From contig NZ_CCBB010000001.1 in NCBI RefSeq assembly GCF_000613185.1, positions 2,542,001 through 2,606,000 on the forward strand: a DNA stretch of 64,000 nucleotides. The letters are read 5' to 3'. Made by a program: the position numbers and the translations under genes. This stretch comes from Mycolicibacterium cosmeticum (lineage in GTDB: Bacteria > Actinomycetota > Actinomycetes > Mycobacteriales > Mycobacteriaceae). The notes below the pieces were generated by a model that worked only from the letters and a program-made list of their open reading frames with translations, ran no database searches and was not told where the DNA came from. This document shows positions 23,229-33,047 of this stretch, one piece after another. Numbering within the stretch: the stretch's first letter is position 1; each line of letters begins with the position of its first letter.

Positions 23229-23233
23229 CGGAG

Positions 23234-23776
23234 TCACACCTTTCGCAGTTCGAACACCGGGATGACCCGTTCGGGTTTGGGGTACGTGCCGATGCGGGGG
23301 CAGAGTTCGATCATCTTCGCCCAGATCGCCTCGCGCTCATCGCCGGTGATCTCGTCGGCGACGACGTCGTATGCCTGCGTGCCGACCTCGACGCGTGCGG
23401 CGGAGTTCACCCGAAGATTGTGAACCCATGCCGGGTGCTGCGGCGCCCCACCTCTGGTGCCGACGATGTACATCCGGCCATCGACAGTGAAGTACTCCAA
23501 GGGCGTTCGGCGCCGCCGGCCTGACTTGGCGCCCGTCATCGTCAAGAGCAGGACATGCGAATCCGCAAAGGGGCCACCGACCTTTCCTCCATTCGACTCG
23601 AATTCCTCCAGGACCGCCGCGTTGAAACGTCGCAGGATCTCCGGATTCGCCCGCGCCTCGGCGTAGGTGGGGATGCGCAGCAGCCTGGAATCAGGGACGG
23701 AACTGTGGTGCGCCGTTGCTGGGGTGGCGGCTGCAGAGGACGCCGAGCCGCCGGGTATCGCGTGGTCGTTGGTCAT
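23234..23776 (-). CDS. F420-type (deazaflavin) nitroreductase family protein
   Basis: The 180-residue protein belongs to the Ddn/FDOR split-barrel family, marked by LLLTMTGAKSGRRRRTPLEY and GAPQHPAWVHNLRVNSAARVEVG. Relatives use F420H2 to reduce quinones, nitro compounds or enones. ATG 23776 gives a typical length; upstream codons in frame look non-coding. It is divergent from an XRE/MmyB-like regulator gene 117 bp away, a common arrangement for regulator and target. Confidence 0.85.
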   Translation of the reverse strand: MTNDHAIPGGSASSAAATPATAHHSSVPDSRLLRIPTYAEARANPEILRRFNAAVLEEFESNGGKVGGPFADSHVLLLTMTGAKSGRRRRTPLEYFTVDGRMYIVGTRGGAPQHPAWVHNLRVNSAARVEVGTQAYDVVADEITGDEREAIWAKMIELCPRIGTYPKPERVIPVFELRKV

Positions 23777-23893
23777 CACACCATCGTCAGCGCGACCGCT
23801 GGGCAGTTCCAGACCCGGCGGTGCCAGGGGTGTCCCGAACCGGGGTACAACCAGACCTATGGTCACCCGCGCCCCGCGGCGTGATGATGGGGC

Positions 23894-24778
23894 ATGCGCA
23901 ATGTCGAACTGGGCGCGTTCTTGCAGGCCCGTCGGGCGGCGGTGTCGCCGACAGCGGTCGGGTTGCCGCACAACGGTGCGCGCCGGCGTGTTCCCGGGTT
24001 ACGCAGGGAAGAGGTCGCCGCATTGGTCGGCCTGTCCACCGACTACTACATACGGCTGGAACAGGGCCGCGCCGGCAGGCCATCGGAGACGGTGCTCGAG
24101 GCCATCGCGAGGGCGCTGTTACTCGACGAGCCCCAGCGTGAACATCTTCGCGACCTTGCCCGCCCGCGTCACGATCGGCCCCGCGCAACTCGCGAACAAC
24201 TCAGCGCCCTGACGCGGATGTTCCTCGACACCCTGACGGTGCCCGCCCTGGTCATGACCGCCAACACCGATGTCATCGGATGGAACGCTCTCGCCGGTAT
24301 CGTGTTCACCGATTTCGCGGCTCGACCGATCCGCGAGCGGAACACCGCTTGGCTGCTGTTCCGTGACGCCGAACTAGCCGCCCGGCACCGCAACTGGGAG
24401 GCGTCGGCACGCGATACCGTCGGCATGCTGCGGATGGCGGCAGGCCGGAACCCGGACGATGCCGGACTGACCGCGCTGGTCGACGAGTTGTCCACGCACA
24501 GCCCGGCGTTTCGTCGGTACTGGAGCAACCACCATGTCTACGCCAAGTCGACCGGCGTGACGCAGCTGCGGCATCCCGATATCGGCGACATCGACCTCGC
24601 CTTCATCGCCTGGAGCACCCCGGCGTCACCGAATCAGACCCTCGTCACCTACACGCCCGAACCCGGATCACCGTCGGCCCGGGCGATCGGCCTTCTCGGC
24701 TCGAACCGTCCCGGCCGGGGGCAGGCGCGGGGTCACGGCCCCTGTCCGGCCGGAGATGACGGTCGAGCGGTCGGCTAG
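23894..24778 (+). CDS. XRE-family regulator with MmyB-like ligand-binding domain
   Basis: The product has 294 residues: an N-terminal HTH (about 8-85; GLRREEVAALVGLSTDYYIRLEQGR) and a PAS-like ligand domain (about 105-265; VPALVMTANTDVIGWNALA, WSNHHVYAKSTGVTQLRHPDIG) found in MmyB/MLTR regulators, which bind fatty-acid-like ligands. It probably controls the divergent F420-dependent reductase gene. The Pro/Gly-rich tail overlaps the stop of the convergent GntR gene by 4 bp. Confidence 0.85.
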   Translation: MRNVELGAFLQARRAAVSPTAVGLPHNGARRRVPGLRREEVAALVGLSTDYYIRLEQGRAGRPSETVLEAIARALLLDEPQREHLRDLARPRHDRPRATREQLSALTRMFLDTLTVPALVMTANTDVIGWNALAGIVFTDFAARPIRERNTAWLLFRDAELAARHRNWEASARDTVGMLRMAAGRNPDDAGLTALVDELSTHSPAFRRYWSNHHVYAKSTGVTQLRHPDIGDIDLAFIAWSTPASPNQTLVTYTPEPGSPSARAIGLLGSNRPGRGQARGHGPCPAGDDGRAVG

Positions 24779-25437
24779 ATCGAGTCGCCGAGACCGGCCA
24801 GCAGCGCCTGCCGGCTGGCCCGCACATGCTCACGCATCACCCGTTCGGCGCTGTCACCGTCCTTGGCCAGGATGAGATCCAGCACCACATGGTGTTCCCG
24901 GTCGGACTGCAGGGGCCGGCCCGGCTGGCTCAGGGAGGTGTGCACCAGGCGCGCGTAGGCGAGCTGGTTCATCAGCATGCGGTAGTGCGCTTCGAGTTTG
25001 CGGTTGTCGGCACCGATGATCAGCAGGTCGTGGAATTCCTCGACGAGTTCGGCATACCGTGCGCGGTCATCATGCGCGACGGCGTCATCGGCCCGGCGGA
25101 GGTTGTCCTCCAGCTTGTCCACCTCCGGCACGCGGCCGCGCTGGGCCAGCAGCCTGGCCGCCGCACCCTCCAGGAGTTCCTTCATCTCGAACAGTTCGGT
25201 GATCTCCCGGCGCGACGGGGTGGTGACGAATGTGCCGACCCGGGGCCGGATCTCGATGAGTCCTTCGGTCTGCAGCTGTTTGAAGGTCTCGCGTACCGGG
25301 GTTCGGGAGACGCCGAACTCCTCGGCGATGGCCAGTTCGGAGATGTTGACACCGGGTGCGATCTCGCCGGCGATGATCCGGCGCCGGATCTCCTCGATCA
25401 ACCGACCTTGGATCGAACCGTTCGAGCTCACCGCCAC
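24775..25437 (-). CDS. GntR-family regulator, FadR/FCD subfamily
   Basis: The product is 220 residues. The winged helix (about 8-75; LIEEIRRRIIAGEIAPGVNI, FGVSRTPVRETFKQLQTEGLI) is followed by an all-helical FCD domain with metal-ligand-like residues (DDRARYAELVEEFHDLLI, YRMLMNQL). FCD regulators usually respond to a carboxylate and repress catabolic genes. It is the last gene of the BCCT-SnoaL-flavin reductase operon, starting 3 bp after the reductase stop. Expected targets are the divergent promoters at 27938-28117. Confidence 0.88.
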   Translation of the reverse strand: MAVSSNGSIQGRLIEEIRRRIIAGEIAPGVNISELAIAEEFGVSRTPVRETFKQLQTEGLIEIRPRVGTFVTTPSRREITELFEMKELLEGAAARLLAQRGRVPEVDKLEDNLRRADDAVAHDDRARYAELVEEFHDLLIIGADNRKLEAHYRMLMNQLAYARLVHTSLSQPGRPLQSDREHHVVLDLILAKDGDSAERVMREHVRASRQALLAGLGDSI

Positions 25438-25440
25438 TCC

Positions 25441-25926
25441 CTAGGACAGTGCGGCCAGGTTGCCGCCGTCGAAGAACTTACCGGCGCTGTACACCATCGG
25501 GTGCAGGTCGGTCACCTCGGCGTGGACCACCCGGCACATGAACACGGTGTGCGTGCTGGCCTGCAGTCGTTCGAGGATGCGCACCTCCATCGCGGCGGCA
25601 CTGCGGCCCAACAGCGGGCTGCCGTGCGGTCCGGGCCGCCACTCCAGACCCGCGAATTTGTCATCCGATTTGGTGGCGAACCGGGTGACGACGTCGAGCT
25701 GGTCGGTGGACAGGATGTTGATGGCCAGATGTTCTGCGCGGAACAGGCATTCATGCGTCGACGACGTGTGTTGCACGGCGACCATGACCGTGGGTGGGTC
25801 CAGCGAGATACTGGCGAACGCGTTGACCGCGAGCCCGCGCGGCAGCTCACCGTCGCGGGCGGTCACGGCGGTCACCCCGGTGACGAACCGACGGTTCACC
25901 TGTTTCATCAGATCGGCATCGGTCAC
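25441..25926 (-). CDS. Flavin reductase (HpaC/NTA-MoB type)
   Basis: A 161-residue split-barrel flavin reductase: RRFVTGVTAVTARDGELPRG, ASISLDPPTVMVAVQ, HLAINILSTDQ. These enzymes use NAD(P)H to supply reduced FMN or FAD to a partner monooxygenase, here most likely the luciferase-like protein at 31678-32721 in the divergent operon. The GTG start at 25926 overlaps the stop of the previous gene (GTGA). Confidence 0.88.
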   Translation of the reverse strand: MTDADLMKQVNRRFVTGVTAVTARDGELPRGLAVNAFASISLDPPTVMVAVQHTSSTHECLFRAEHLAINILSTDQLDVVTRFATKSDDKFAGLEWRPGPHGSPLLGRSAAAMEVRILERLQASTHTVFMCRVVHAEVTDLHPMVYSAGKFFDGGNLAALS

Positions 25927-26351
25927 CGGTCTTGTCCCACCGCGATGATGCCGAGCGCGGTCAGCAGGGTCCGCGGATCCCAGGTGACGTGCTCTTCCAC
26001 GATGTGCTCGCCGTCGAACCGGGCGAAGGTGGCACCGCTGACCTGCACTGTGCGCTTGGTGGCGGGCACCCCGAGGAAGGAGTGCTCATGGCTGCCGGTG
26101 CTGTGCCAGCGCACGGCCGCCCGGTCGCCCTCGACGACGATGTCGTCGATGGTGGTGAGCAGGTCGGGGAACGCGGTGCGCGTCGCGGTGATCGACGCCT
26201 TGAACTCCTCCCGGCCGAGGCCGGTGCCGTTGGCACCGATGCGCCGGTACCGGTCGGCCAACAGCTCGTCGATGGCGTCCACCTCGCCGCGGTCCCACGC
26301 GGCCGCCCAGGCGGCCCGGATGCGGTTGCGGCGGGATGCGTTGTCGGGCAT
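25923..26351 (-). CDS. SnoaL-like/NTF2-fold protein
   Basis: A 142-residue cone-shaped alpha+beta-barrel protein with the SnoaL/ester-cyclase pattern: AWDRGEVDAIDELLADRYRR, GREEFKASITATRTAFPDLLTTIDDIV, RWHSTGSHEHSFLG. Members range from cyclases and isomerases to proteins of unknown role. It lies between a transporter and a flavin reductase, so it may act on the ring-opened intermediate of the pathway; that is inference. Confidence 0.8.
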   Translation of the reverse strand: MPDNASRRNRIRAAWAAAWDRGEVDAIDELLADRYRRIGANGTGLGREEFKASITATRTAFPDLLTTIDDIVVEGDRAAVRWHSTGSHEHSFLGVPATKRTVQVSGATFARFDGEHIVEEHVTWDPRTLLTALGIIAVGQDR

Positions 26352-26359
26352 GGAGTCTC

Positions 26360-27937
26360 CTAGTCGTCGATGAGATCAGCGATGGGCGTCTCGGGCGCGG
26401 TGTGCTTGCGGTCGGCGATGAGGTCCTTCCAGAACGACACCGCCAGGCACGCGATGATGATCAGGAACGGCAGCGAGGCGACGATCACGGTGTTCTGCAA
26501 GGCGTTGAGGCCGCCGGCGAACATCAGCACCACGGCCGTGATCCCGGTCAGCACACCCCACAGGATCAGGACGCCGCGCCGTGGCGTCAGCGTGCCGTCA
26601 CTGGTCATCATGCCCAGCACATAGGTGTTGGCGTCCGCGCCGGAGATGAAGAAGATCAGCACCAGCAGGATGGCCACCACCGAGGTCACCGAGGCGAGCG
26701 GGAAGTGGGCCAAGGTCGCGAAGAACGCGCTGTTGATGTCTGCGGCTGTCTGTTTGGCGATATCCCCGCCCTCGAACATGTCGATGTGGATGGCGGTTCC
26801 GCCGAACACGGTGAACCAGGTGAAGAACACCACGCTCGGTACCACCAGCACACCGACGATGAACCCACGGACGGTGCGGCCCTTGGAAATCCGGGCCAGG
26901 AACACCCCGACGAAGGCGCCCCACGACACCCACCATGCCAGCATGAAATAGGTCCACCACTGCATCCATTCCAGATCACCGAAGGCGGTGCCCTGCAGGC
27001 TCATCCGGAAGAAGTCGGTGGCCCAGGTGCCCAGTGACTCGATGTAGAGGTTGGCGATGAAGACGGTCGGTCCGACGACGAGCATGAACACGAACAGCGC
27101 AACCGCCATCACCGTGCTGCCCTGGCTGAGGAACTTGATGCCCTTGCTGACGCCGGTCACCGCGGACATGGTGAACACGGCCGTCACGGCGGCGATGATG
27201 ACCACCTGGGCGACGTTGTTGACCGGGATGCCGAACAGGGTGAACAGACCGTTGTTGACCTGGAGCGCGCCCAGTCCGAGCGAGGTTGTGGTGCCGAACA
27301 GAGTCGCGAACACCGCCAGCACGTCGATCACCTTGCCGATCGGCCCGTTCGCGCGATCGCCGATCAGCGGCACGAAAAGTTGGCTGACCAGGGTGCGCCG
27401 ACCCATCCGATAGGTGGAGTAGGCGATGGCCAGACCGAACACCGCGAAGATGGCCCAGGCGTGCAGACCCCAGTCGAAGTAGGAGTATTGCATGGCGCGC
27501 ACCGCGGCCTGTGGGCTGCCGGGTTCGGCCAGACCGTGCGGGGGCGCGGCCAGATGCGAGATCGGTTCGGCGACACCGTAGGACACCAATCCGATGCCCA
27601 TGACCGCGCTCAGGATCATCGCCAGCCAGGTGAGGGTGCTGAACTCCGGGCGGTCACTGTCCTTGCCGAGCCGGACGTCGCCGTACGGGCTGAACGCGAG
27701 GAAGACGAGGAACACCAGCAGGCCGAGCGTCACCACCAGGTAGAGCCAGCCGAAGCTGCCGGTCACCCAGTTCAGGGAGGCGGTGGTGACCTTGTTGAGG
27801 TTGTCGGTGAGCACCACGGCCCACGCCACGAAGACGGCGGAGATGCCGACGGAGGTCCAGAAGACCGATCCGAGCCGGCCCGTCCGGGGTGGTGCCGGTA
27901 CTTCCGTGATCGGCTCGGTGCCGAGGTCAGCTGTCAT
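26360..27937 (-). CDS. BCCT-family (betaine/choline/carnitine) transporter
   Basis: The 525-residue protein has 12 hydrophobic segments and BCCT landmarks: the Trp-rich stretch [25 protein letters not shown]-like ([19 protein letters not shown]), [21 protein letters not shown] and [11 protein letters not shown]-like [13 protein letters not shown]. BCCT carriers take up quaternary-ammonium compounds such as betaine, choline, carnitine or methylated heterocycles. ATG 27937 has AGGAG 6 nt upstream. First gene of the minus operon; it points to a betaine-like substrate for the whole island. Confidence 0.92.
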   Translation of the reverse strand: [525 protein letters not shown]

Positions 27938-28117
27938 GGGAAACTCCTGCCGGGCGACTTGTATGCAACAGAATGTAAGTGGAGTCACAGTCACTGTCAA
28001 CGCGAACTGTCGCCGCTACACCTCGGGCGGTGCATATCTTGCACTTATCTGCAGATTCGTCCTCCCTTGGCTGTCCATCCTTGACCGTCGACAACTCGGC
28101 CAACTATCGTCTGTGGC
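27938..28117. promoter_or_regulatory. Divergent control region of the catabolic island with GntR-like operators
   Basis: In 180 bp between BCCT and AA_synth genes lie TTGTATGCAA (27959-27968, near-palindromic, close to the TTGTATACAA form many FCD regulators bind) and GTGCA-TATCT-TGCAC (28030-28044, perfect 5-bp arms). The region is less GC-rich than the genes. Confidence 0.5.
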
Positions 28118-28720
28118 ATGCAACAGATTGGCCTGCGCAAGGTGGTCTCGTACCGCGAGACGGTCGTCACCGAGGCCGGGGCGCACCCGGCACACCCCGC
28201 CGTACAGGCCAGCGTCGCGGCCGTCATCGCCAACCCGTGGGTGGGTACCGGCCCCGGACGTGACCTGTCCGCCGAGGTCACGCAGATCGCTCCCCTGCTC
28301 GCGCGACTGCTCACCGACCGGCTGACCCAGGCCCTCGGCGGGGCCGAAGCGGTCGAGGCGTTCGGCAAGGCGGCCCTCGTCGGTACCGCCGGCGAGATCG
28401 AACACGGCGGCGCACTCATCCATACCCCCTACTTCGGCAACCTGATGCGCGAATTCCTCGGCGGCGAGTCGATCATCTGCTTCGCCGACGCCCGCGCGGA
28501 AGCCGGTGAGCCGCTGGTGATCCCGCTGTGGCACAAGACGCAGGCCGCGACCCGCAGCCACTACCAGACGGTGAGCACCCGGATCTCGGACGGTCCGCGC
28601 GCCGACGAACTGGTCATCGTCGCCGCCGGATCCACCGGCCCCCGCCCGCATCCCCGCATCGGGGACCGCACCACCGACCCCGCCGTCACCGTCAAGAGTC
28701 TGGAGAGTGTCCTGTCATGA
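28118..28720 (+). CDS. AA_synth (PF06684, former DUF1185) family protein, copy 1
   Basis: This 200-residue protein shares a clear pattern with the next gene product: NPWVGTGPGRDL, EAFGKAALVGTAGEIEHGGA, LIHTPYFGNLMRE, IPLWHKTQAATRSHYQTVSTR and ADELVIVAAG. The Pfam name suggests amino acid synthesis, but its biochemical role is not established. It heads the catabolic operon; its stop overlaps the second copy (ATGA). A role in an early or toxic-intermediate step is possible. Confidence 0.75.
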   Translation: MQQIGLRKVVSYRETVVTEAGAHPAHPAVQASVAAVIANPWVGTGPGRDLSAEVTQIAPLLARLLTDRLTQALGGAEAVEAFGKAALVGTAGEIEHGGALIHTPYFGNLMREFLGGESIICFADARAEAGEPLVIPLWHKTQAATRSHYQTVSTRISDGPRADELVIVAAGSTGPRPHPRIGDRTTDPAVTVKSLESVLS

Positions 28721-29268
28721 AGCTGCGCAAGATCGTCACCGTCGTCGAAGAGATCCGCACCGAGGGCGGCCGGGAGGTCAATCCGCCGGCTCGTGTCGCC
28801 GTCGTCGCCGCGGTGATCGAAAATCCGTGGGCTGGGCAGGGATTCGTGGAGAACCTGAACCCGGGCATCGACGCGACAGCGTCCGATCTCGGCGCGCTAC
28901 TCGCTCCCCTGGTGCTCGAAGCCCTCGACGCCCCCGCCGAGGCCTACGGCAAGGCGGCGATCGTCGGGCTCGACGGCGAGATCGAACACGGCTCCGGGTT
29001 GATCCACACGCTGAAGTTCGGCGACCACTTCCGCAAGGCGGCCAACGCCACCACGTTGTTGCCCGCGGTGGAGAAGCGCGGGCCGGCCGGTGTGCTCTTC
29101 GACATCCCGCTCAAACACATCACCGACGCCACCATCCGCTCCCACCACCAGACCGTCGAGGTCCGTGTCGCCGACGCCCCACACGCCGACGAGATCGTCA
29201 TCGCGCTGGCCGCGTCCGCGCAGGGCCGCCCGCAGCAGCGGCTGGCCCCGTTGAGCTCCGAGCAGTGA
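28717..29268 (+). CDS. AA_synth (PF06684) family protein, copy 2
   Basis: This 183-residue paralogue of the previous product keeps the same motifs: NPWAGQGFVENL, EAYGKAAIVGLDGEIEHGSG, LIHTLKFGDHFRK, IPLKHITDATIRSHHQTVEVR and ADEIVIALA. The conserved HG/GEIEHG and SHxQTV segments may form an active or binding site. Two diverged copies, translationally coupled, suggest a heteromeric complex. Function not known. Confidence 0.75.
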   Translation: MKLRKIVTVVEEIRTEGGREVNPPARVAVVAAVIENPWAGQGFVENLNPGIDATASDLGALLAPLVLEALDAPAEAYGKAAIVGLDGEIEHGSGLIHTLKFGDHFRKAANATTLLPAVEKRGPAGVLFDIPLKHITDATIRSHHQTVEVRVADAPHADEIVIALAASAQGRPQQRLAPLSSEQ

Positions 29269-30002
29269 CCGCCGTCGTCCTGCTGCACGGGGTGGGGCTC
29301 GACCACACCGTGTGGGAGCCGGTCACCGCGCTGCTGGACGACCGGTTCACCGTCATCACACCGGACCTGCCCGGCCACGGCGCGCGGCCACCGGCCCCGG
29401 CCGGGGTGACCCTGGCCGACCTGGCCGACGGGGTCGCCGCCGACATTCCGCCCGGTGCACACCTCGTCGGGTTCTCGCTCGGCGCGCTGGTGGCCCAACA
29501 CCTTGCGGTGCACCGGCCCGAACTGGTGGCCTCGCTGGCGTCGGTGGCCTCGGTGTGCCGGCGCACCCCGCAGGAACGGGCCGCCGTGCTGGCCCGGCTG
29601 GACGCCGCGGCCGCCGATATGGCGGCCAGTTCGGCTGCATCGCTGCACCGTTGGTACGACGGCACCGACGTCGGCCCCGAGCAGGTGGCCGCCACCGCCG
29701 CAATGCTGGCGGCCAACGATCGCGACAGCTTCCTGCACTGCTACCGGGTGTTCGCCACCGCGGACGCCGAGATCGGCCCGCAGTTGGGCCGCATCGGGGT
29801 GCCCGCGTTGGCCGTCACCGGATCCGACGACCCCGGCTCCACCCCGGAGATGACGCGGCGACTGGCCGACTCCATTCCGGGTTGTGAGGCCGTCGTCATC
29901 CCCGGCGCGCGACACATGCTCCCCGTCCAGAAGCCGGCCGAACTGGCCGCCTGCCTCACGTCCTTCCACACCCGCGTCCTCGGAGGTCACACCCGTGTCT
30001 GA
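29265..30002 (+). CDS. Alpha/beta hydrolase (3-oxoadipate enol-lactonase-like)
   Basis: This 245-residue hydrolase has the oxyanion HGVGLDHTVWEPV, the nucleophile elbow LVGFSLGALVAQ (Ser near residue 69), a late Asp in AVTGSDDPGSTP and His in IPGARHMLP, so the Ser-Asp-His triad is complete. It resembles lactonases and C-C or amide hydrolases of catabolic pathways. The GTG overlaps the previous stop (GTGA) and the gene overlaps the ALDH gene by 8 nt. Candidate for hydrolysing a ring-opened intermediate or lactone. Confidence 0.85.
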   Translation: MTAVVLLHGVGLDHTVWEPVTALLDDRFTVITPDLPGHGARPPAPAGVTLADLADGVAADIPPGAHLVGFSLGALVAQHLAVHRPELVASLASVASVCRRTPQERAAVLARLDAAAADMAASSAASLHRWYDGTDVGPEQVAATAAMLAANDRDSFLHCYRVFATADAEIGPQLGRIGVPALAVTGSDDPGSTPEMTRRLADSIPGCEAVVIPGARHMLPVQKPAELAACLTSFHTRVLGGHTRV

Positions 30003-31476
30003 AACACTGCAGCACTTCATCGGCGGCGCACCGACCCCACCGAACTCCGGCGAGTACTTCGAGAGCACCAACCCGGCCACCCGGGAGGTGCTGTACCGGG
30101 CCGCACGCGGCAACGCCGCCGATATCGACACGGCCGTGGCCGCGGCGACCGAGGCATTCCACGACCCCCGGTGGCGTGATCTGTCCCAGACCAAACGCGG
30201 TCACCTGCTGCGCCGGCTCGGTGACCTCATCGGTGCACACGCCGAGGAACTGGCCCGCTCGGAGTCGTTGGACAACGGCAAGTTGCTGCGGGAGATGCGG
30301 GGCCAGCTGGCCACGCTGCCCGAGTATTACTACTACTACGCGGGTTTGGCCGACAAGATCCACGGTGAGGTGATCCCCACCTCGAATCGTCAGGTGCTCA
30401 ACTACACCATGCGCGAGCCGCTGGGGGTGGTCGGCGCGATCACCCCGTGGAATTCTCCGTTGACGCTGACCACCAGCAAGCTGGCACCCGCGTTGTGCGT
30501 CGGCAACACCGTGGTGATCAAACCGTCGGAGTACACGTCGGCGACGGTGCTGAAACTCGCCGAACTCGCGATCGAGGCCGGCTTCCCGCCGGGTGCGGTC
30601 AACGTCGTCACCGGCTTCGGCGCCGAAGCCGGCCAGCCGCTGGTGGATCATCGCGGGCTGGCGAAGATCTCGTTCACCGGCAGCACCGCCACCGGTTCAC
30701 GCATCGCCTCGGCGGCGGCCGGCCGGTTCATCGGTTCGACGCTGGAGCTGGGCGGCAAGTCCCCGAACATCGTCTTCGACGACGCCGACATCGCCAACGC
30801 CGCCACCGGTGTGGTGGCGGGCATCTTCGCCGCGGCCGGGCAGACGTGCATCGCGGGCAGCCGAGTGTTCGCCCACCGCGCGATCTACGACGAACTGCTC
30901 GACCGCGTCGCCGAGCGCGCCCGCAGCATCCGGATGGGCAACCCGCTCGACGACGACACCGAACTCGGCCCGCTGGCATTCGAGGATCAACGCGACAAGG
31001 TCGCCTCTTACGTCGACCTTGGCCGCAGCGAGGGCGCCCGGGTGCTCACCGGCGGTCGGGCCACCGATGGCGGCCTCGGCGGATTCTTCTACGAACCAAC
31101 GGTTCTGGTCGACGTGACCAACGAGATGCGGGTGGTCCGCGAGGAGATCTTCGGGCCGGTCGCGGCGGTCATGCCCTTCGACACCGAAGACGAGGTGATC
31201 GCGCTCGCCAATGACACCGACTACGGTCTGGCCGCCGGGATCTGGACCTCGAATCTGGCCCGCGCACACCGGATGGCGGCACGGCTGGACGCCGGCACCA
31301 TCTGGGTGAACACCTACCGGGCCATGTCACCCATGTCCCCCAGGCAAGGCTTCAAGAGCAGCGGTGTCGGCGTCGAGCACGGCACCGAGACCATCAAGGA
31401 GTACACCCGGCTCAAGAGCGTGTGGATCAACACCGACGAGGGCCCGGTGCCCGACCCGTTCGTGATGCGGAGCTGA
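29995..31476 (+). CDS. Aldehyde dehydrogenase
   Basis: A 493-residue NAD(P)-dependent ALDH with PWNSPLTLTTSKLAPALCVGN, KPSEYTSAT, the Glu motif LELGGKSPNIVFDD (near residue 251) and the Cys motif AAGQTCIAGSRVF (near 285). It oxidises an aldehyde to the acid, in this context probably a semialdehyde formed after ring cleavage. GTG 29995 has GGAGG 8 nt upstream. Closest subgroup looks like betaine/2-hydroxymuconic-type ALDHs, but the substrate is not readable. Confidence 0.92.
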   Translation: MSETLQHFIGGAPTPPNSGEYFESTNPATREVLYRAARGNAADIDTAVAAATEAFHDPRWRDLSQTKRGHLLRRLGDLIGAHAEELARSESLDNGKLLREMRGQLATLPEYYYYYAGLADKIHGEVIPTSNRQVLNYTMREPLGVVGAITPWNSPLTLTTSKLAPALCVGNTVVIKPSEYTSATVLKLAELAIEAGFPPGAVNVVTGFGAEAGQPLVDHRGLAKISFTGSTATGSRIASAAAGRFIGSTLELGGKSPNIVFDDADIANAATGVVAGIFAAAGQTCIAGSRVFAHRAIYDELLDRVAERARSIRMGNPLDDDTELGPLAFEDQRDKVASYVDLGRSEGARVLTGGRATDGGLGGFFYEPTVLVDVTNEMRVVREEIFGPVAAVMPFDTEDEVIALANDTDYGLAAGIWTSNLARAHRMAARLDAGTIWVNTYRAMSPMSPRQGFKSSGVGVEHGTETIKEYTRLKSVWINTDEGPVPDPFVMRS

Positions 31477-31477
31477 C

Positions 31478-31681
31478 ATGCCACTCGTCGAGGTCACCAT
31501 CGCCGAGGGCCGGTCGGCCGCGCAGATCCGCGCCATGATGCACGAGGTGCACGAGGCGGTGTTGCGCACCGTGGACACCCGCCCCGAGCACATCCGCGTC
31601 ATCGTCCGGGAGGTTCCCCGGACCCATTGGGCCACAGGCGATCTGACCATCGCCGAAATGAGATCGAAGGAGCCGTCATGA
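31478..31681 (+). CDS. 4-oxalocrotonate tautomerase family protein
   Basis: The product has 67 residues with the N-terminal MPLVEVTIAEGR giving Pro2 as catalytic base, and HIRVIVREVPRTHWATGD, typical of 4-OT. These small oligomeric enzymes interconvert enol and keto acids or act as hydratases in aromatic catabolism. It begins one base after the ALDH stop and overlaps the monooxygenase start (ATGA). Confidence 0.88.
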   Translation: MPLVEVTIAEGRSAAQIRAMMHEVHEAVLRTVDTRPEHIRVIVREVPRTHWATGDLTIAEMRSKEPS

Positions 31682-32721
31682 GATTCTCGCTGTTCGTGCA
31701 CATGGAGCGTTGGGACGAATCGGTCAGCCATCGTGAACTTTTCGAGAACCTGACCGAGCTGACATTATTGGCCGAGGCCGGCGGTTTTTCGACGGTGTGG
31801 ATCGGCGAACACCACGCCATGGAGTACACCATCTCGCCGAGCCCGATGCCGCTGCTGGCGTACCTGGCCGGCCAGACCAGCACCATTCGGCTCGGGGCGG
31901 GAACCATCATCGCGCCGTTCTGGAACCCGATCCGGGTGGCGGGTGAATGCGCCCTGCTCGACGTGATCAGCAACGGTCGCATGGAGGTCGGACTGGCCCG
32001 CGGCGCCTACCAGATCGAGTTCGACCGGATGATGCCCGGACTGGCAGCCTCCGACGGCGGCAAATACCTCCGCGAACTGGTGCCCGCGGTCCGCAACCTG
32101 TGGCAGGGCGACTACGCGCACGACGGGCAGATCTGGCAGTTCCCGACGTCGACCAGCGTACCCAAGCCGGTGCAGAAGCCGACCCCGCCGATGTGGATCG
32201 CCGCCCGCGACCCCGACTCCCACGACTTCGCGGTGGCCCATGGCTGCAATGTGATGGTCACACCCCTGATGAAGGGCGACGAGGAGGTGGTGGCGCTGCG
32301 GGACAAGTTCGAGACCGCCGTCGCCAACCATCCCGAGGTGCCGCGCCCGCAGCTGATGGTGTTGCGCCACACCCATATTCACTCGCCGGCAGATCCCGAC
32401 GGCTGGCGTCCGGCGGCCGCGGCCATCTCGCGGTTCTACCGCACCTTCGATGCCTGGTTCGGGAACTCGACCACACCGGTCAACGGCTTCCTGGACCCCA
32501 GCCCGGAATCGAAATTCGCCGGGCGCCCGGAGTTCGAACTGGAATCGCTGCACCGAACCGCCATGATCGGCACCCCCGACGAGGTCATCGAGCGGTTACA
32601 CACCTACCGGGATCTCGGCGTCGACGAGTACAGCTTCTGGATCGACAACAGCATGAGCCACGACGAGAAGCGCATATCCCTGGAACTGTTCATCAAGGAA
32701 GTCGTCCCCGCTTTCCAGTAA
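31678..32721 (+). CDS. Luciferase-like (LLM) flavin-dependent monooxygenase
   Basis: A 347-residue bacterial-luciferase-type TIM barrel: MRFSLFVHMERWDESVSHRE, LLAEAGGFSTVWIGEHHAMEY, RLGAGTIIAPFWNPIRVAGE, LLDVISNGRMEVGLARGAYQ. Such enzymes use FMNH2 supplied by a separate reductase, present in the divergent operon. In trigonelline and pyridine degradation, LLM enzymes open the N-heterocyclic ring. It is the probable first catabolic enzyme of this island. Confidence 0.88.
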   Translation: MRFSLFVHMERWDESVSHRELFENLTELTLLAEAGGFSTVWIGEHHAMEYTISPSPMPLLAYLAGQTSTIRLGAGTIIAPFWNPIRVAGECALLDVISNGRMEVGLARGAYQIEFDRMMPGLAASDGGKYLRELVPAVRNLWQGDYAHDGQIWQFPTSTSVPKPVQKPTPPMWIAARDPDSHDFAVAHGCNVMVTPLMKGDEEVVALRDKFETAVANHPEVPRPQLMVLRHTHIHSPADPDGWRPAAAAISRFYRTFDAWFGNSTTPVNGFLDPSPESKFAGRPEFELESLHRTAMIGTPDEVIERLHTYRDLGVDEYSFWIDNSMSHDEKRISLELFIKEVVPAFQ

Positions 32722-32731
32722 GGAGCCGGCC

Positions 32732-33040
32732 ATGGACGGTGTGCGTATCGCCGCCGCAGATCTGCAGGACGCCCAACGCCGCGCGGCCAAGGTCCGCGCC
32801 GCGGGAAAGCCGGTGCTGCTCGACATCGAGGTGCTGATCGACCGCGACAGCCGCGCGGCGTTCCGGGCACTGGAGCGGGTGCCCGCCAGCGGCGCGCTGC
32901 GCTACGTCGGCACACCACGCGGCCTGGCCGGGTTGATCGCCGATGTGCAGCGCCTCGGTGTCGCCGACTATGTCGTGCTCAAGCCGCTCGCGGACAGCCC
33001 GGTGGCGGACCTGATGCTGGAGGAACTGCTGGCCGGGTGA
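32732..33040 (+). CDS. Small protein resembling the C-terminal part of LLM monooxygenases
   Basis: This 102-residue product, 10 nt after the monooxygenase gene with GGAG before its ATG, reads LLDIEVLIDRDSRAAFRALE then LRYVGTPRGLAGLIADVQR and ADYVVLKPLA. The VGTP...LGVADYVVLKP end is like the closing barrel elements of luciferase-like enzymes. It could be a regulatory or structural subunit, or a degenerate paralogue. No established family recognised. Confidence 0.65.
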   Translation: MDGVRIAAADLQDAQRRAAKVRAAGKPVLLDIEVLIDRDSRAAFRALERVPASGALRYVGTPRGLAGLIADVQRLGVADYVVLKPLADSPVADLMLEELLAG

Positions 33041-33047
33041 GCCCTGG

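What the first reader, a model, noticed from the sequence alone, without database searches (positions are those of the whole stretch)
24775..33040. Candidate catabolic island for a betaine-like N-compound (trigonelline-type logic)
Seen: two divergent operons. Minus: BCCT transporter, SnoaL, flavin reductase, GntR-FCD. Plus: two AA_synth paralogues, alpha/beta hydrolase, ALDH, 4-OT tautomerase, LLM monooxygenase, LLM-tail protein. Known: trigonelline degradation in Acinetobacter uses an LLM oxygenase with a flavin reductase, an aldehyde dehydrogenase and a hydrolase, releasing methylamine and formate. BCCT carriers import quaternary amines. Inferred: this island opens a methylated N-heterocycle or similar betaine. 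The tautomerase, SnoaL and AA_synth genes are extra, so the pathway may be new.
Basis: partly seen in the sequence, partly recalled or inferred. Interest (0 to 1): 0.75.

Follow-up and report, generated by a model that had tools for sequence, protein, structure and literature searches.

The report
Mycobacterial trigonelline-type breakdown gene cluster
A soil-type mycobacterium carries an inserted set of about ten genes that most likely lets it eat trigonelline, a common plant compound, by a pathway known from other bacteria but assembled here with several swapped or added parts.

Summary
The island is real: 10 of 11 genes have the stated families; only the "LLM-tail" label is unconfirmed. It is best read as an actinobacterial version of the known trigonelline (tgn) pathway. 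RefSeq-named TgnB and TgnC from an Acinetobacter plasmid find the window LLM (50% identity, 408 bits, next 84) and ALDH (46%) as best matches in the whole genome. AA_synth is not "extra": TgnF of that pathway is, by one paper, a homologue of an AA_synth-type protein. Sinorhizobium pSymA, needed for growth on trigonelline, carries an AA_synth-hydrolase-reductase-LLM-ALDH set. The core genes keep order and strand in 40 of 42 actinobacterial loci. Importers there: BCCT alone 21, NCS1 permease alone 16, both 3, neither 2; some proteobacterial clusters use the same families. SnoaL shares an ORF with the reductase in 4 of 42. Real additions are a 4-OT tautomerase and a second AA_synth. The cluster sits between gatD and recR, where 8 of 11 relatives have at most 1.4 kb. 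A near-palindrome at both divergent starts suggests GntR control. Trigonelline is the best-supported substrate but unproven: the window LLM lies in a clade separate from TgnB. New variant of a known kind.

The parts
24775..25437 (-). GntR-family regulator with FCD domain, probable repressor of the cluster
   Evidence: Pfam GntR and FCD above cut-off; a GntR gene within 9 kb in 40 of 42 actinobacterial loci
25441..25926 (-). short-chain flavin reductase, TgnA-like reductase partner of the LLM (lacks the Nudix-like C-terminal half of TgnA)
   Evidence: Pfam Flavin_Reduct 130.6 bits; 34.7% to the N-terminal half of annotated TgnA
25923..26351 (-). SnoaL-like protein, probable partner of the flavin reductase
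   Evidence: Pfam SnoaL 97.4 bits; in one ORF with the reductase in L048, L055, L068, L117 (Pfam domains for L117)
26360..27937 (-). BCCT transporter, inferred importer of the pyridinium betaine
   Evidence: Pfam BCCT 593 bits; PDB match to BetP E 9e-102; an NCS1 permease is found instead in 16 of 42 loci and in addition in 3
27959..27968 (.). operator-like near-palindrome TTGTATGCAA, 21 bases before the BCCT start codon
28081..28120 (+). sigma-70-like promoter TTGACC-18-TATCGT ending 7 nt before the ATG (leaderless mRNA suggested)
   Evidence: same layout or close variants in 27 of 42 regions; the pattern occurs once in the window, both strands counted
28114..28123 (.). operator-like near-palindrome TGGCATGCAA overlapping the AA_synth start codon
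   Evidence: motif in 34 of 42 regions (two or more sites in 20, one in 14), about 0.04 expected per region
28118..28720 (+). AA_synth (PF06684) paralogue 1, TgnF-like
   Evidence: Pfam 181.5 bits; conserved residues kept
28717..29268 (+). AA_synth (PF06684) paralogue 2, TgnF-like
   Evidence: Pfam 202 bits; the search found only these two AA_synth copies in the genome
29265..30002 (+). alpha/beta hydrolase in the TgnD position
   Evidence: Pfam Abhydrolase_6 90.5 bits; nucleophile elbow G-x-S-x-G and Asp/His columns conserved across the 6 sequences aligned
29995..31476 (+). aldehyde dehydrogenase, TgnC orthologue candidate
   Evidence: best hit of annotated TgnC in the genome, 443 vs 365 bits
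31478..31681 (+). 4-oxalocrotonate-tautomerase-type enzyme with Pro1, Arg11 and Arg39
   Evidence: translation, NCBIfam below cut-off; 34 of 42 actinobacterial loci
31678..32721 (+). luciferase-like flavin monooxygenase, TgnB orthologue candidate
   Evidence: Pfam 197 bits; best hit of annotated TgnB, 408 vs 84 bits for the next
32732..33040 (+). small protein of unknown role, seen only in mycobacterial loci; membership of the pathway uncertain

Best explanation
The island is a horizontally acquired trigonelline (N-methylnicotinate) catabolic cluster, the actinobacterial form of the tgn pathway. BCCT imports the pyridinium betaine. The flavin reductase (with SnoaL) supplies reduced flavin to the LLM, which opens the N-methylpyridinium ring. 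The ALDH oxidises the resulting hydroxylactone/aldehyde, and the alpha/beta hydrolase splits the N-methylformamido-enamine, releasing methylamine, formate and a formyl-succinate that loses CO2 to succinic semialdehyde. A succinic semialdehyde dehydrogenase encoded elsewhere finishes the route to succinate, with the AA_synth proteins as TgnF-like accessory factors. The 4-OT tautomerase probably handles the enol/keto forms of the formyl-succinate stage, where many proteobacterial clusters have a CMD-family protein. GntR represses both divergent promoters through TTGYATGCAA-type sites. Shown here: homology, conserved gene order, shared importer families, insertion site, conserved motifs. Inferred: every enzymatic step, the substrate and the regulation. 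Steps are taken from the annotated enzyme names and recalled knowledge of Perchat et al. 2018.
For: Acinetobacter sp. PK01 plasmid holds, named by RefSeq, tgnA, tgnB and tgnC with AA_synth, alpha/beta hydrolase, GntR, cytosine permease, SSADH and CMD. Best hit in the genome: TgnB to the window LLM, TgnC to the window ALDH. TgnF is called a homologue of a DUF1185-type protein (PMC7913881). S. meliloti pSymA (strain ABS7) has AA_synth-ABH-FR-LLM-ALDH, and PMC4207669 states that only wild type, not a strain without pSymA, grows on trigonelline (methods passage). Core genes together in 41 of 42 actinobacterial loci, same order in 40; importers BCCT alone 21, NCS1 alone 16, both 3, neither 2. 8 of 8 Pseudomonas genomes tested, all with the roughly 80%-identical LLM, also carry an AA_synth-ABH-TgnC module. 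Bridging cluster on Arthrobacter plasmid pDCT5 with SSADH and SnoaL-FR fusion. One match only per positive genome (4 of 4, E at most 1e-60; 11 of 390, E at most 1e-70, at most 5 candidates scored per genome; 16 of 105, E at most 1e-60); G061 and G427 are each in two of these.
Against: The window LLM is only 50% identical to TgnB and lies in its own strongly supported clade; how that clade joins the TgnB clade is unresolved. The reductase matches only half of TgnA (35%), the hydrolase only 31%, the regulator 37% over 81 residues. No SSADH in the cluster; the best candidates elsewhere are 45%. A paralogous cluster with the same gene set exists on R. etli p42f beside a tgn-like one on p42c, so the gene set alone does not fix the substrate. 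Three loci have both importers, so the two are not strict alternatives. PMC7913881 reports that its authors could not show a stimulating effect for the AA_synth-type protein they tested. No actinobacterial growth data were found. The SoxD search for a methylamine route was negative but its controls were silent too.
Confidence: 0.64

Rival explanations
1. Same chemistry, different substrate: the actinobacterial/Pseudomonas clade opens another N-alkylpyridinium betaine (homarine, N-methylnicotinamide, N-methylpyridinium or a similar alkaloid).
For: Separate LLM clade, 45-54% identical to the 10 TgnB-clade rows aligned; changed stretch around residues 48-60 of the LLM; paralogous clusters in one rhizobium; added tautomerase and second AA_synth; two importer types side by side in 3 loci.
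Against: The same importer families (BCCT, NCS1) and the same lower pathway occur in some TgnB-type clusters and in this clade; the positive genomes each gave one match. For homarine, PMC8269262 argues that TgnA/TgnB-type ring opening is sterically hindered (passage), though that paper's homarine standard was later found contaminated (PMC10134881, abstract start in the search listing).
Confidence: 0.21
2. Catabolism of an acyclic betaine (glycine betaine, carnitine, choline): BCCT plus a betaine-aldehyde-type dehydrogenase.
For: BCCT matches BetP best among solved structures; ALDH scores 517 bits against the betaine-aldehyde dehydrogenase model.
Against: That score is below the curated 668.6; annotated TgnC scores similarly (479 bits). 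A ring-opening type LLM, its reductase and AA_synth have no place in those pathways (recalled).
Confidence: 0.05
3. Pyrimidine-type ring opening (Rut-like: LLM, flavin reductase, alpha/beta hydrolase).
For: Similar class composition (recalled).
Against: Reductase 65 bits against a RutF cut-off of 254.75, hydrolase 48 against RutD 238.5; RutA is not among the 25 LLM models listed of 29 that match.
Confidence: 0.02

Closest known systems
Trigonelline degradation (tgn) cluster of Acinetobacter (TgnA-F; Perchat et al. 2018, recalled, paper not held; RefSeq-named in Acinetobacter sp. PK01)
   Same: Best-hit LLM and ALDH, flavin reductase, alpha/beta hydrolase, AA_synth, GntR regulator
   Different: LLM in a separate clade; two AA_synth copies instead of one; SnoaL protein, and no Nudix-like extension on the reductase; 4-OT gene and no CMD; BCCT instead of cytosine permease; no SSADH in the cluster
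Sinorhizobium meliloti pSymA cluster (strain ABS7)
   Same: AA_synth-ABH-FR-LLM-ALDH set; pSymA needed for growth on trigonelline (PMC4207669, passage)
   Different: ABC transporter, NIPSNAP gene, one-strand order, LLM 52% identical
Arthrobacter dokdonellae plasmid pDCT5 cluster
   Same: Two AA_synth, ABH, ALDH, tautomerase and LLM in the same order; LLM 80% identical
   Different: SnoaL fused to the reductase; cytosine permease; SSADH, Nudix and riboflavin kinase genes next to it
R. etli p42f / A. fabrum pAt paralogous clusters
   Same: Same enzyme families
   Different: More distant LLM (44-45%), CMD present; ProX-type betaine genes nearby in pAt, amino-acid-type ABC genes in p42f; substrate unknown

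Membership tests
tgn (trigonelline) pathway | LLM oxygenase orthologous to TgnB | tested here: met
   Best hit of TgnB in the genome, 408 vs 84 bits; full length, 50%. Separate clade, so orthology in function is not shown
tgn (trigonelline) pathway | flavin reductase partner TgnA | tested here: inconclusive
   Reductase present in 41 of 42 loci, but the window one matches only the N-terminal half of TgnA at 35% and lacks its Nudix-like extension
tgn (trigonelline) pathway | dehydrogenase TgnC | tested here: met
   Best hit in the genome, 443 vs 365 bits; ELGGK and GQTC motifs
tgn (trigonelline) pathway | alpha/beta hydrolase TgnD | tested here: inconclusive
   Catalytic columns conserved but 31% identity; that TgnD is this kind of gene is recalled
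tgn (trigonelline) pathway | succinic semialdehyde dehydrogenase TgnE | tested here: inconclusive
   Not in the cluster; 45% candidates elsewhere in the genome
tgn (trigonelline) pathway | AA_synth protein TgnF | tested here: met
   Two copies here, no other found in the genome; TgnF homology to this family from PMC7913881, TgnF itself not compared
tgn (trigonelline) pathway | activity on trigonelline | not testable with these tools
   needs enzyme assay or growth test
Rut pyrimidine pathway | RutF and RutD above curated cut-offs | tested here: not met
   65 vs 254.75 and 48 vs 238.5 bits
Glycine betaine/choline catabolism | betaine-aldehyde dehydrogenase above cut-off | tested here: not met
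   517 vs 668.6 bits

The most novel reading that the evidence does not exclude
The actinobacterial/Pseudomonas clade is a parallel pathway for a different pyridinium betaine, in which a canonical Pro1 tautomerase takes over the step done by the CMD-family protein in proteobacterial clusters and a SnoaL protein is a structural or shielding part of the reductase, so that flavin supply and ring opening are coupled in a new way.
Probability: 0.2. Interest if true: 0.6.

Novelty: new variant of a known kind. Interest (0 to 1): 0.4.

Why it matters
Trigonelline is abundant in plants and soil (recalled). The cluster would extend its catabolism to mycobacteria and other actinobacteria, give testable roles to AA_synth, SnoaL and a 4-OT enzyme in one pathway, and predict a pyridinium betaine as a BCCT substrate. 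The natural variations (BCCT, NCS1 or both; tautomerase or CMD or neither; SnoaL fused or separate) make a good comparative system.

Tried and rejected
Rejected: SnoaL as the separated C-terminal domain of TgnA. Profile comparison gave probability 0.5%, and that domain is Nudix-like instead (a free-standing Nudix protein matches all 11 of 11 C-terminal pieces, best E 1.8e-20, weakest 7.4e-5). Rejected: AA_synth as an extra. Rejected: one dead AA_synth paralogue; all ten residues compared (Arg7, Glu19, Glu90, Glu92, His93, His98, Gly102, His144, Arg172, Arg176 of BB2672) are kept in both.

Rejected: strict replacement of CMD by 4-OT. In the 42 actinobacterial and 16 other proteobacterial loci they occur together only in L056, where CMD lies over 2 kb beyond the LLM, but 8 of 42 and 6 of 16 have neither, so the slot is accessory. 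With the 9 kb limit no locus had both, but with the limit at 10 kb three do (L038, L040, L042: NCS1 just beyond the GntR gene). Led nowhere: the dyad search for operators by fixed gaps (the motif was then seen by eye in the same sequences and counted, so its count is not blind); the SoxD search (controls silent); NCBIfam (no Tgn-named model among those listed for the PK01 proteins); homarine gene literature; base composition (no shift in the island). No structure prediction was run.

Counting notes: loci related by descent are not independent. The 42 actinobacterial loci are all actinobacterial ones among the 80 kept plus the Arthrobacter plasmid; L054 holds only ALDH, tautomerase and LLM. The 80 kept loci are the best of 588, so counts describe the near family. 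The tree used 50 of 143 available proteins. The TgnC and SSADH profiles cross-match, so its SSADH counts are not used. Twelve of the 30 other genomes were fetched at recR; one of them (L190) was cut by a contig end and is left out of the count.
Full report
What is there. Two divergent operons occupy 24775-32721. Pfam confirms GntR-FCD, flavin reductase, SnoaL, BCCT, two AA_synth, alpha/beta hydrolase, ALDH and LLM. A 67-residue tautomerase lies between ALDH and LLM (NCBIfam 4-OT models below cut-off), and it keeps Pro1, Arg11 and Arg39 of 4-OT (numbering recalled, residues read). Several start codons overlap the preceding stop. The small ORF 32732-33040 has no Pfam match and no significant profile match to LLMs; among 99 loci searched it was found only in mycobacterial ones, in 10 of the 11.

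Host. The genome is 6.46 Mb in 5 contigs. The nearest named relative seen is Mycolicibacterium canariasense (LLM 98% identical; DNA 95.5% identical over 14.8 kb), so this is a close relative, probably a distinct species. The LLM at 80% identity or more is found in 2 of 60 other relatives. In a sample across the phylum, members of the family (E at most 1e-60) occur in 3 of 396 genomes, the window's own included. The distribution is sporadic.

Insertion. In the window the gatD-recR interval is 9.8 kb. Of 30 other genomes with recR I fetched 12; 11 have both flanks on the stretch. The interval is 89-1369 bp in 8 and 4.4-7.2 kb in 3, and no gene of the cluster was matched there in any (G014 has the cluster elsewhere). 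Among the 11 mycobacterial loci with the cluster, recR lies beyond the LLM in 5 (L033, L035-L038), and both flanks were in the fetched stretch in 2 of these (L033, L035); in the other six neither gatD nor recR was in the stretch. The related Arthrobacter cluster is on a plasmid typed as mobilizable, with an IS256 transposase and a recombinase within the 25 kb shown. Base composition gives no sign of foreign origin.

Link to the trigonelline pathway. A search seeded with an unnamed relative of the cluster (L135) led to Acinetobacter sp. PK01, whose plasmid carries genes named tgnA, tgnB and tgnC by RefSeq beside AA_synth, alpha/beta hydrolase, GntR, cytosine permease, SSADH and a CMD-family gene. 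I did not have the A. baylyi proteins themselves, and the original paper (PMC5948990) is not held; names rest on RefSeq annotation. Against PK01 the window proteins score: LLM-TgnB 49.7% over 346 residues, ALDH-TgnC 45.8%, reductase-TgnA 34.7% over its N-terminal half, hydrolase 31%, AA_synth 43-44%, regulator 37% over 81 residues. In the whole genome TgnB finds the window LLM first (408 bits, next 84) and TgnC finds the window ALDH first (443 bits, next 365). AA_synth was found twice in the genome, both copies here. [quoted passage not shown] baylyi; its authors could not show a comparable effect for HcdD. SSADH candidates of 45% lie elsewhere in the genome.

An experimental anchor for the family. 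S. meliloti pSymA (strain ABS7) carries AA_synth-ABH-FR-LLM-ALDH between noeB and nifT. PMC4207669 (methods passage) used growth on trigonelline to tell wild type from a strain lacking pSymA, because only the wild type grows. This ties pSymA, not this operon by itself, to trigonelline; that the paper's strain has the same operon was not checked.

Comparative anatomy. In 42 actinobacterial loci, within 9 kb of the LLM: ALDH 42, reductase 41, SnoaL 41, hydrolase 41, two AA_synth copies 41, GntR 40, tautomerase 34, CMD 1 (outside the operon). The core genes keep order and strand in 40 of 42; L094 is rearranged and L054 partial. Importers over the whole fetched stretch: BCCT alone 21, NCS1 alone 16, both 3, neither 2. 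In 39 Pseudomonas loci: NCS1 and reductase 38, tautomerase 0, SnoaL 0; the lower module is adjacent in one (L096) and about 8 kb away in another (L093). In 8 of 8 Pseudomonas genomes tested, an AA_synth-hydrolase-TgnC module is present in the genome. In 16 other proteobacterial loci: ALDH, hydrolase and AA_synth 16, CMD 10, tautomerase 0, SnoaL 0, BCCT only 3, NCS1 only 4, both 1, neither 8. Two unrelated importer families recurring beside the same enzymes across phyla is an argument that the cargo is the same, though the three actinobacterial loci and one other with both weaken it. Fusions back functional links: SnoaL with reductase in L048, L055, L068 and L117 (Pfam for L117), hydrolase with reductase in Mesorhizobium.

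Phylogeny. In a tree of 50 LLMs the window protein falls in a clade of actinobacterial and Pseudomonas proteins (100/100); TgnB of PK01, pSymA and others form a second clade (100/99). How the two join, with three intermediate sequences and the long-stemmed p42f/pAt paralogues, is not resolved. The positive genomes (4 of 4; 11 of 390, at most 5 candidates scored each; 16 of 105) each gave one match under the E limits used; R. etli does carry two members, one of each of two other clades.

Regulation. A near-palindrome of the type TTGYATGCAA occurs 21 bases before the BCCT start (27959-27968) and over the AA_synth start codon (28114-28123). It is found in 34 of 42 upstream regions (41 loci and the window), twice or more in 20 and once in 14, against about 0.04 expected per region; a promoter TTGAC-18-TATCGT placed 7 nt before the ATG, or close variants of it, occurs in 27 of 42. 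The motif was picked by eye from these sequences and the loci share ancestry, so the counts overstate the evidence. GntR as the binder is inferred.

BCCT. The transporter matches BetP best among solved structures. In that alignment the tryptophans of the two aromatic stretches FxWxLHxWAI and AWWxSW are kept, with Phe for one Tyr; that these form the betaine box is recalled.

Mechanism proposed. Import by BCCT; ring opening by LLM with reduced flavin; oxidation by ALDH; hydrolysis to methylamine, formate and a formyl-succinate; loss of CO2 to succinic semialdehyde; oxidation to succinate by a dehydrogenase encoded elsewhere. The tautomerase is best placed at the enol/keto stage of formyl-succinate, where proteobacterial clusters often have a CMD-family gene. 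It is not essential to the cluster, since 8 of 42 actinobacterial loci lack it and have only 12-76 bp between ALDH and LLM.

Literature. Nine searches of the held library (two of them with lists cut at 40 of 3,474 and 30 of 37) listed no paper that I recognised as reporting trigonelline catabolism genes in actinobacteria. Ten papers were seen as passages; the rest only as listings.

Noticed in passing
L155:3523-11270 and L157:6466-12255: R. etli p42f and A. fabrum pAt hold a paralogous LLM cluster (reductase, ALDH, LLM, hydrolase, CMD, AA_synth) with a large helix-turn-helix protein and betaine or amino-acid ABC transporter genes nearby; R. etli also has the tgn-like cluster on p42c. Substrate unknown.
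   Followed up: partly
window 23229-33047: The gatD-recR interval of mycobacteria looks like an insertion hot spot: 89 bp to 7.2 kb in 11 relatives.
   Followed up: partly
L118:9066-10004, L154:7311-8243 (C-terminal halves): TgnA-type reductases end in a Nudix-like domain related to a free-standing Nudix protein at L096:16591-17151.
   Followed up: partly
L070-L112 (Pseudomonas): NCS1 permease, reductase and LLM form a three-gene module mostly split from the lower pathway; both lie on the same contig in the 4 genomes (G061-G064) where both were placed by handle.
   Followed up: partly
L038:369-2036, L040:415-1980, L042:409-1890: Three mycobacterial loci have an NCS1 permease just beyond the GntR gene in addition to BCCT; whether both carry the same cargo is unknown.
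   Followed up: partly
window 32732-33040: Small protein after the LLM, seen only in mycobacterial loci, no family; aligns in register with the LLM C-terminus but not significantly.
   Followed up: partly
L117:3881-4830: Riboflavin kinase and Nudix genes beside the Arthrobacter plasmid cluster, perhaps supplying flavin.
   Followed up: no
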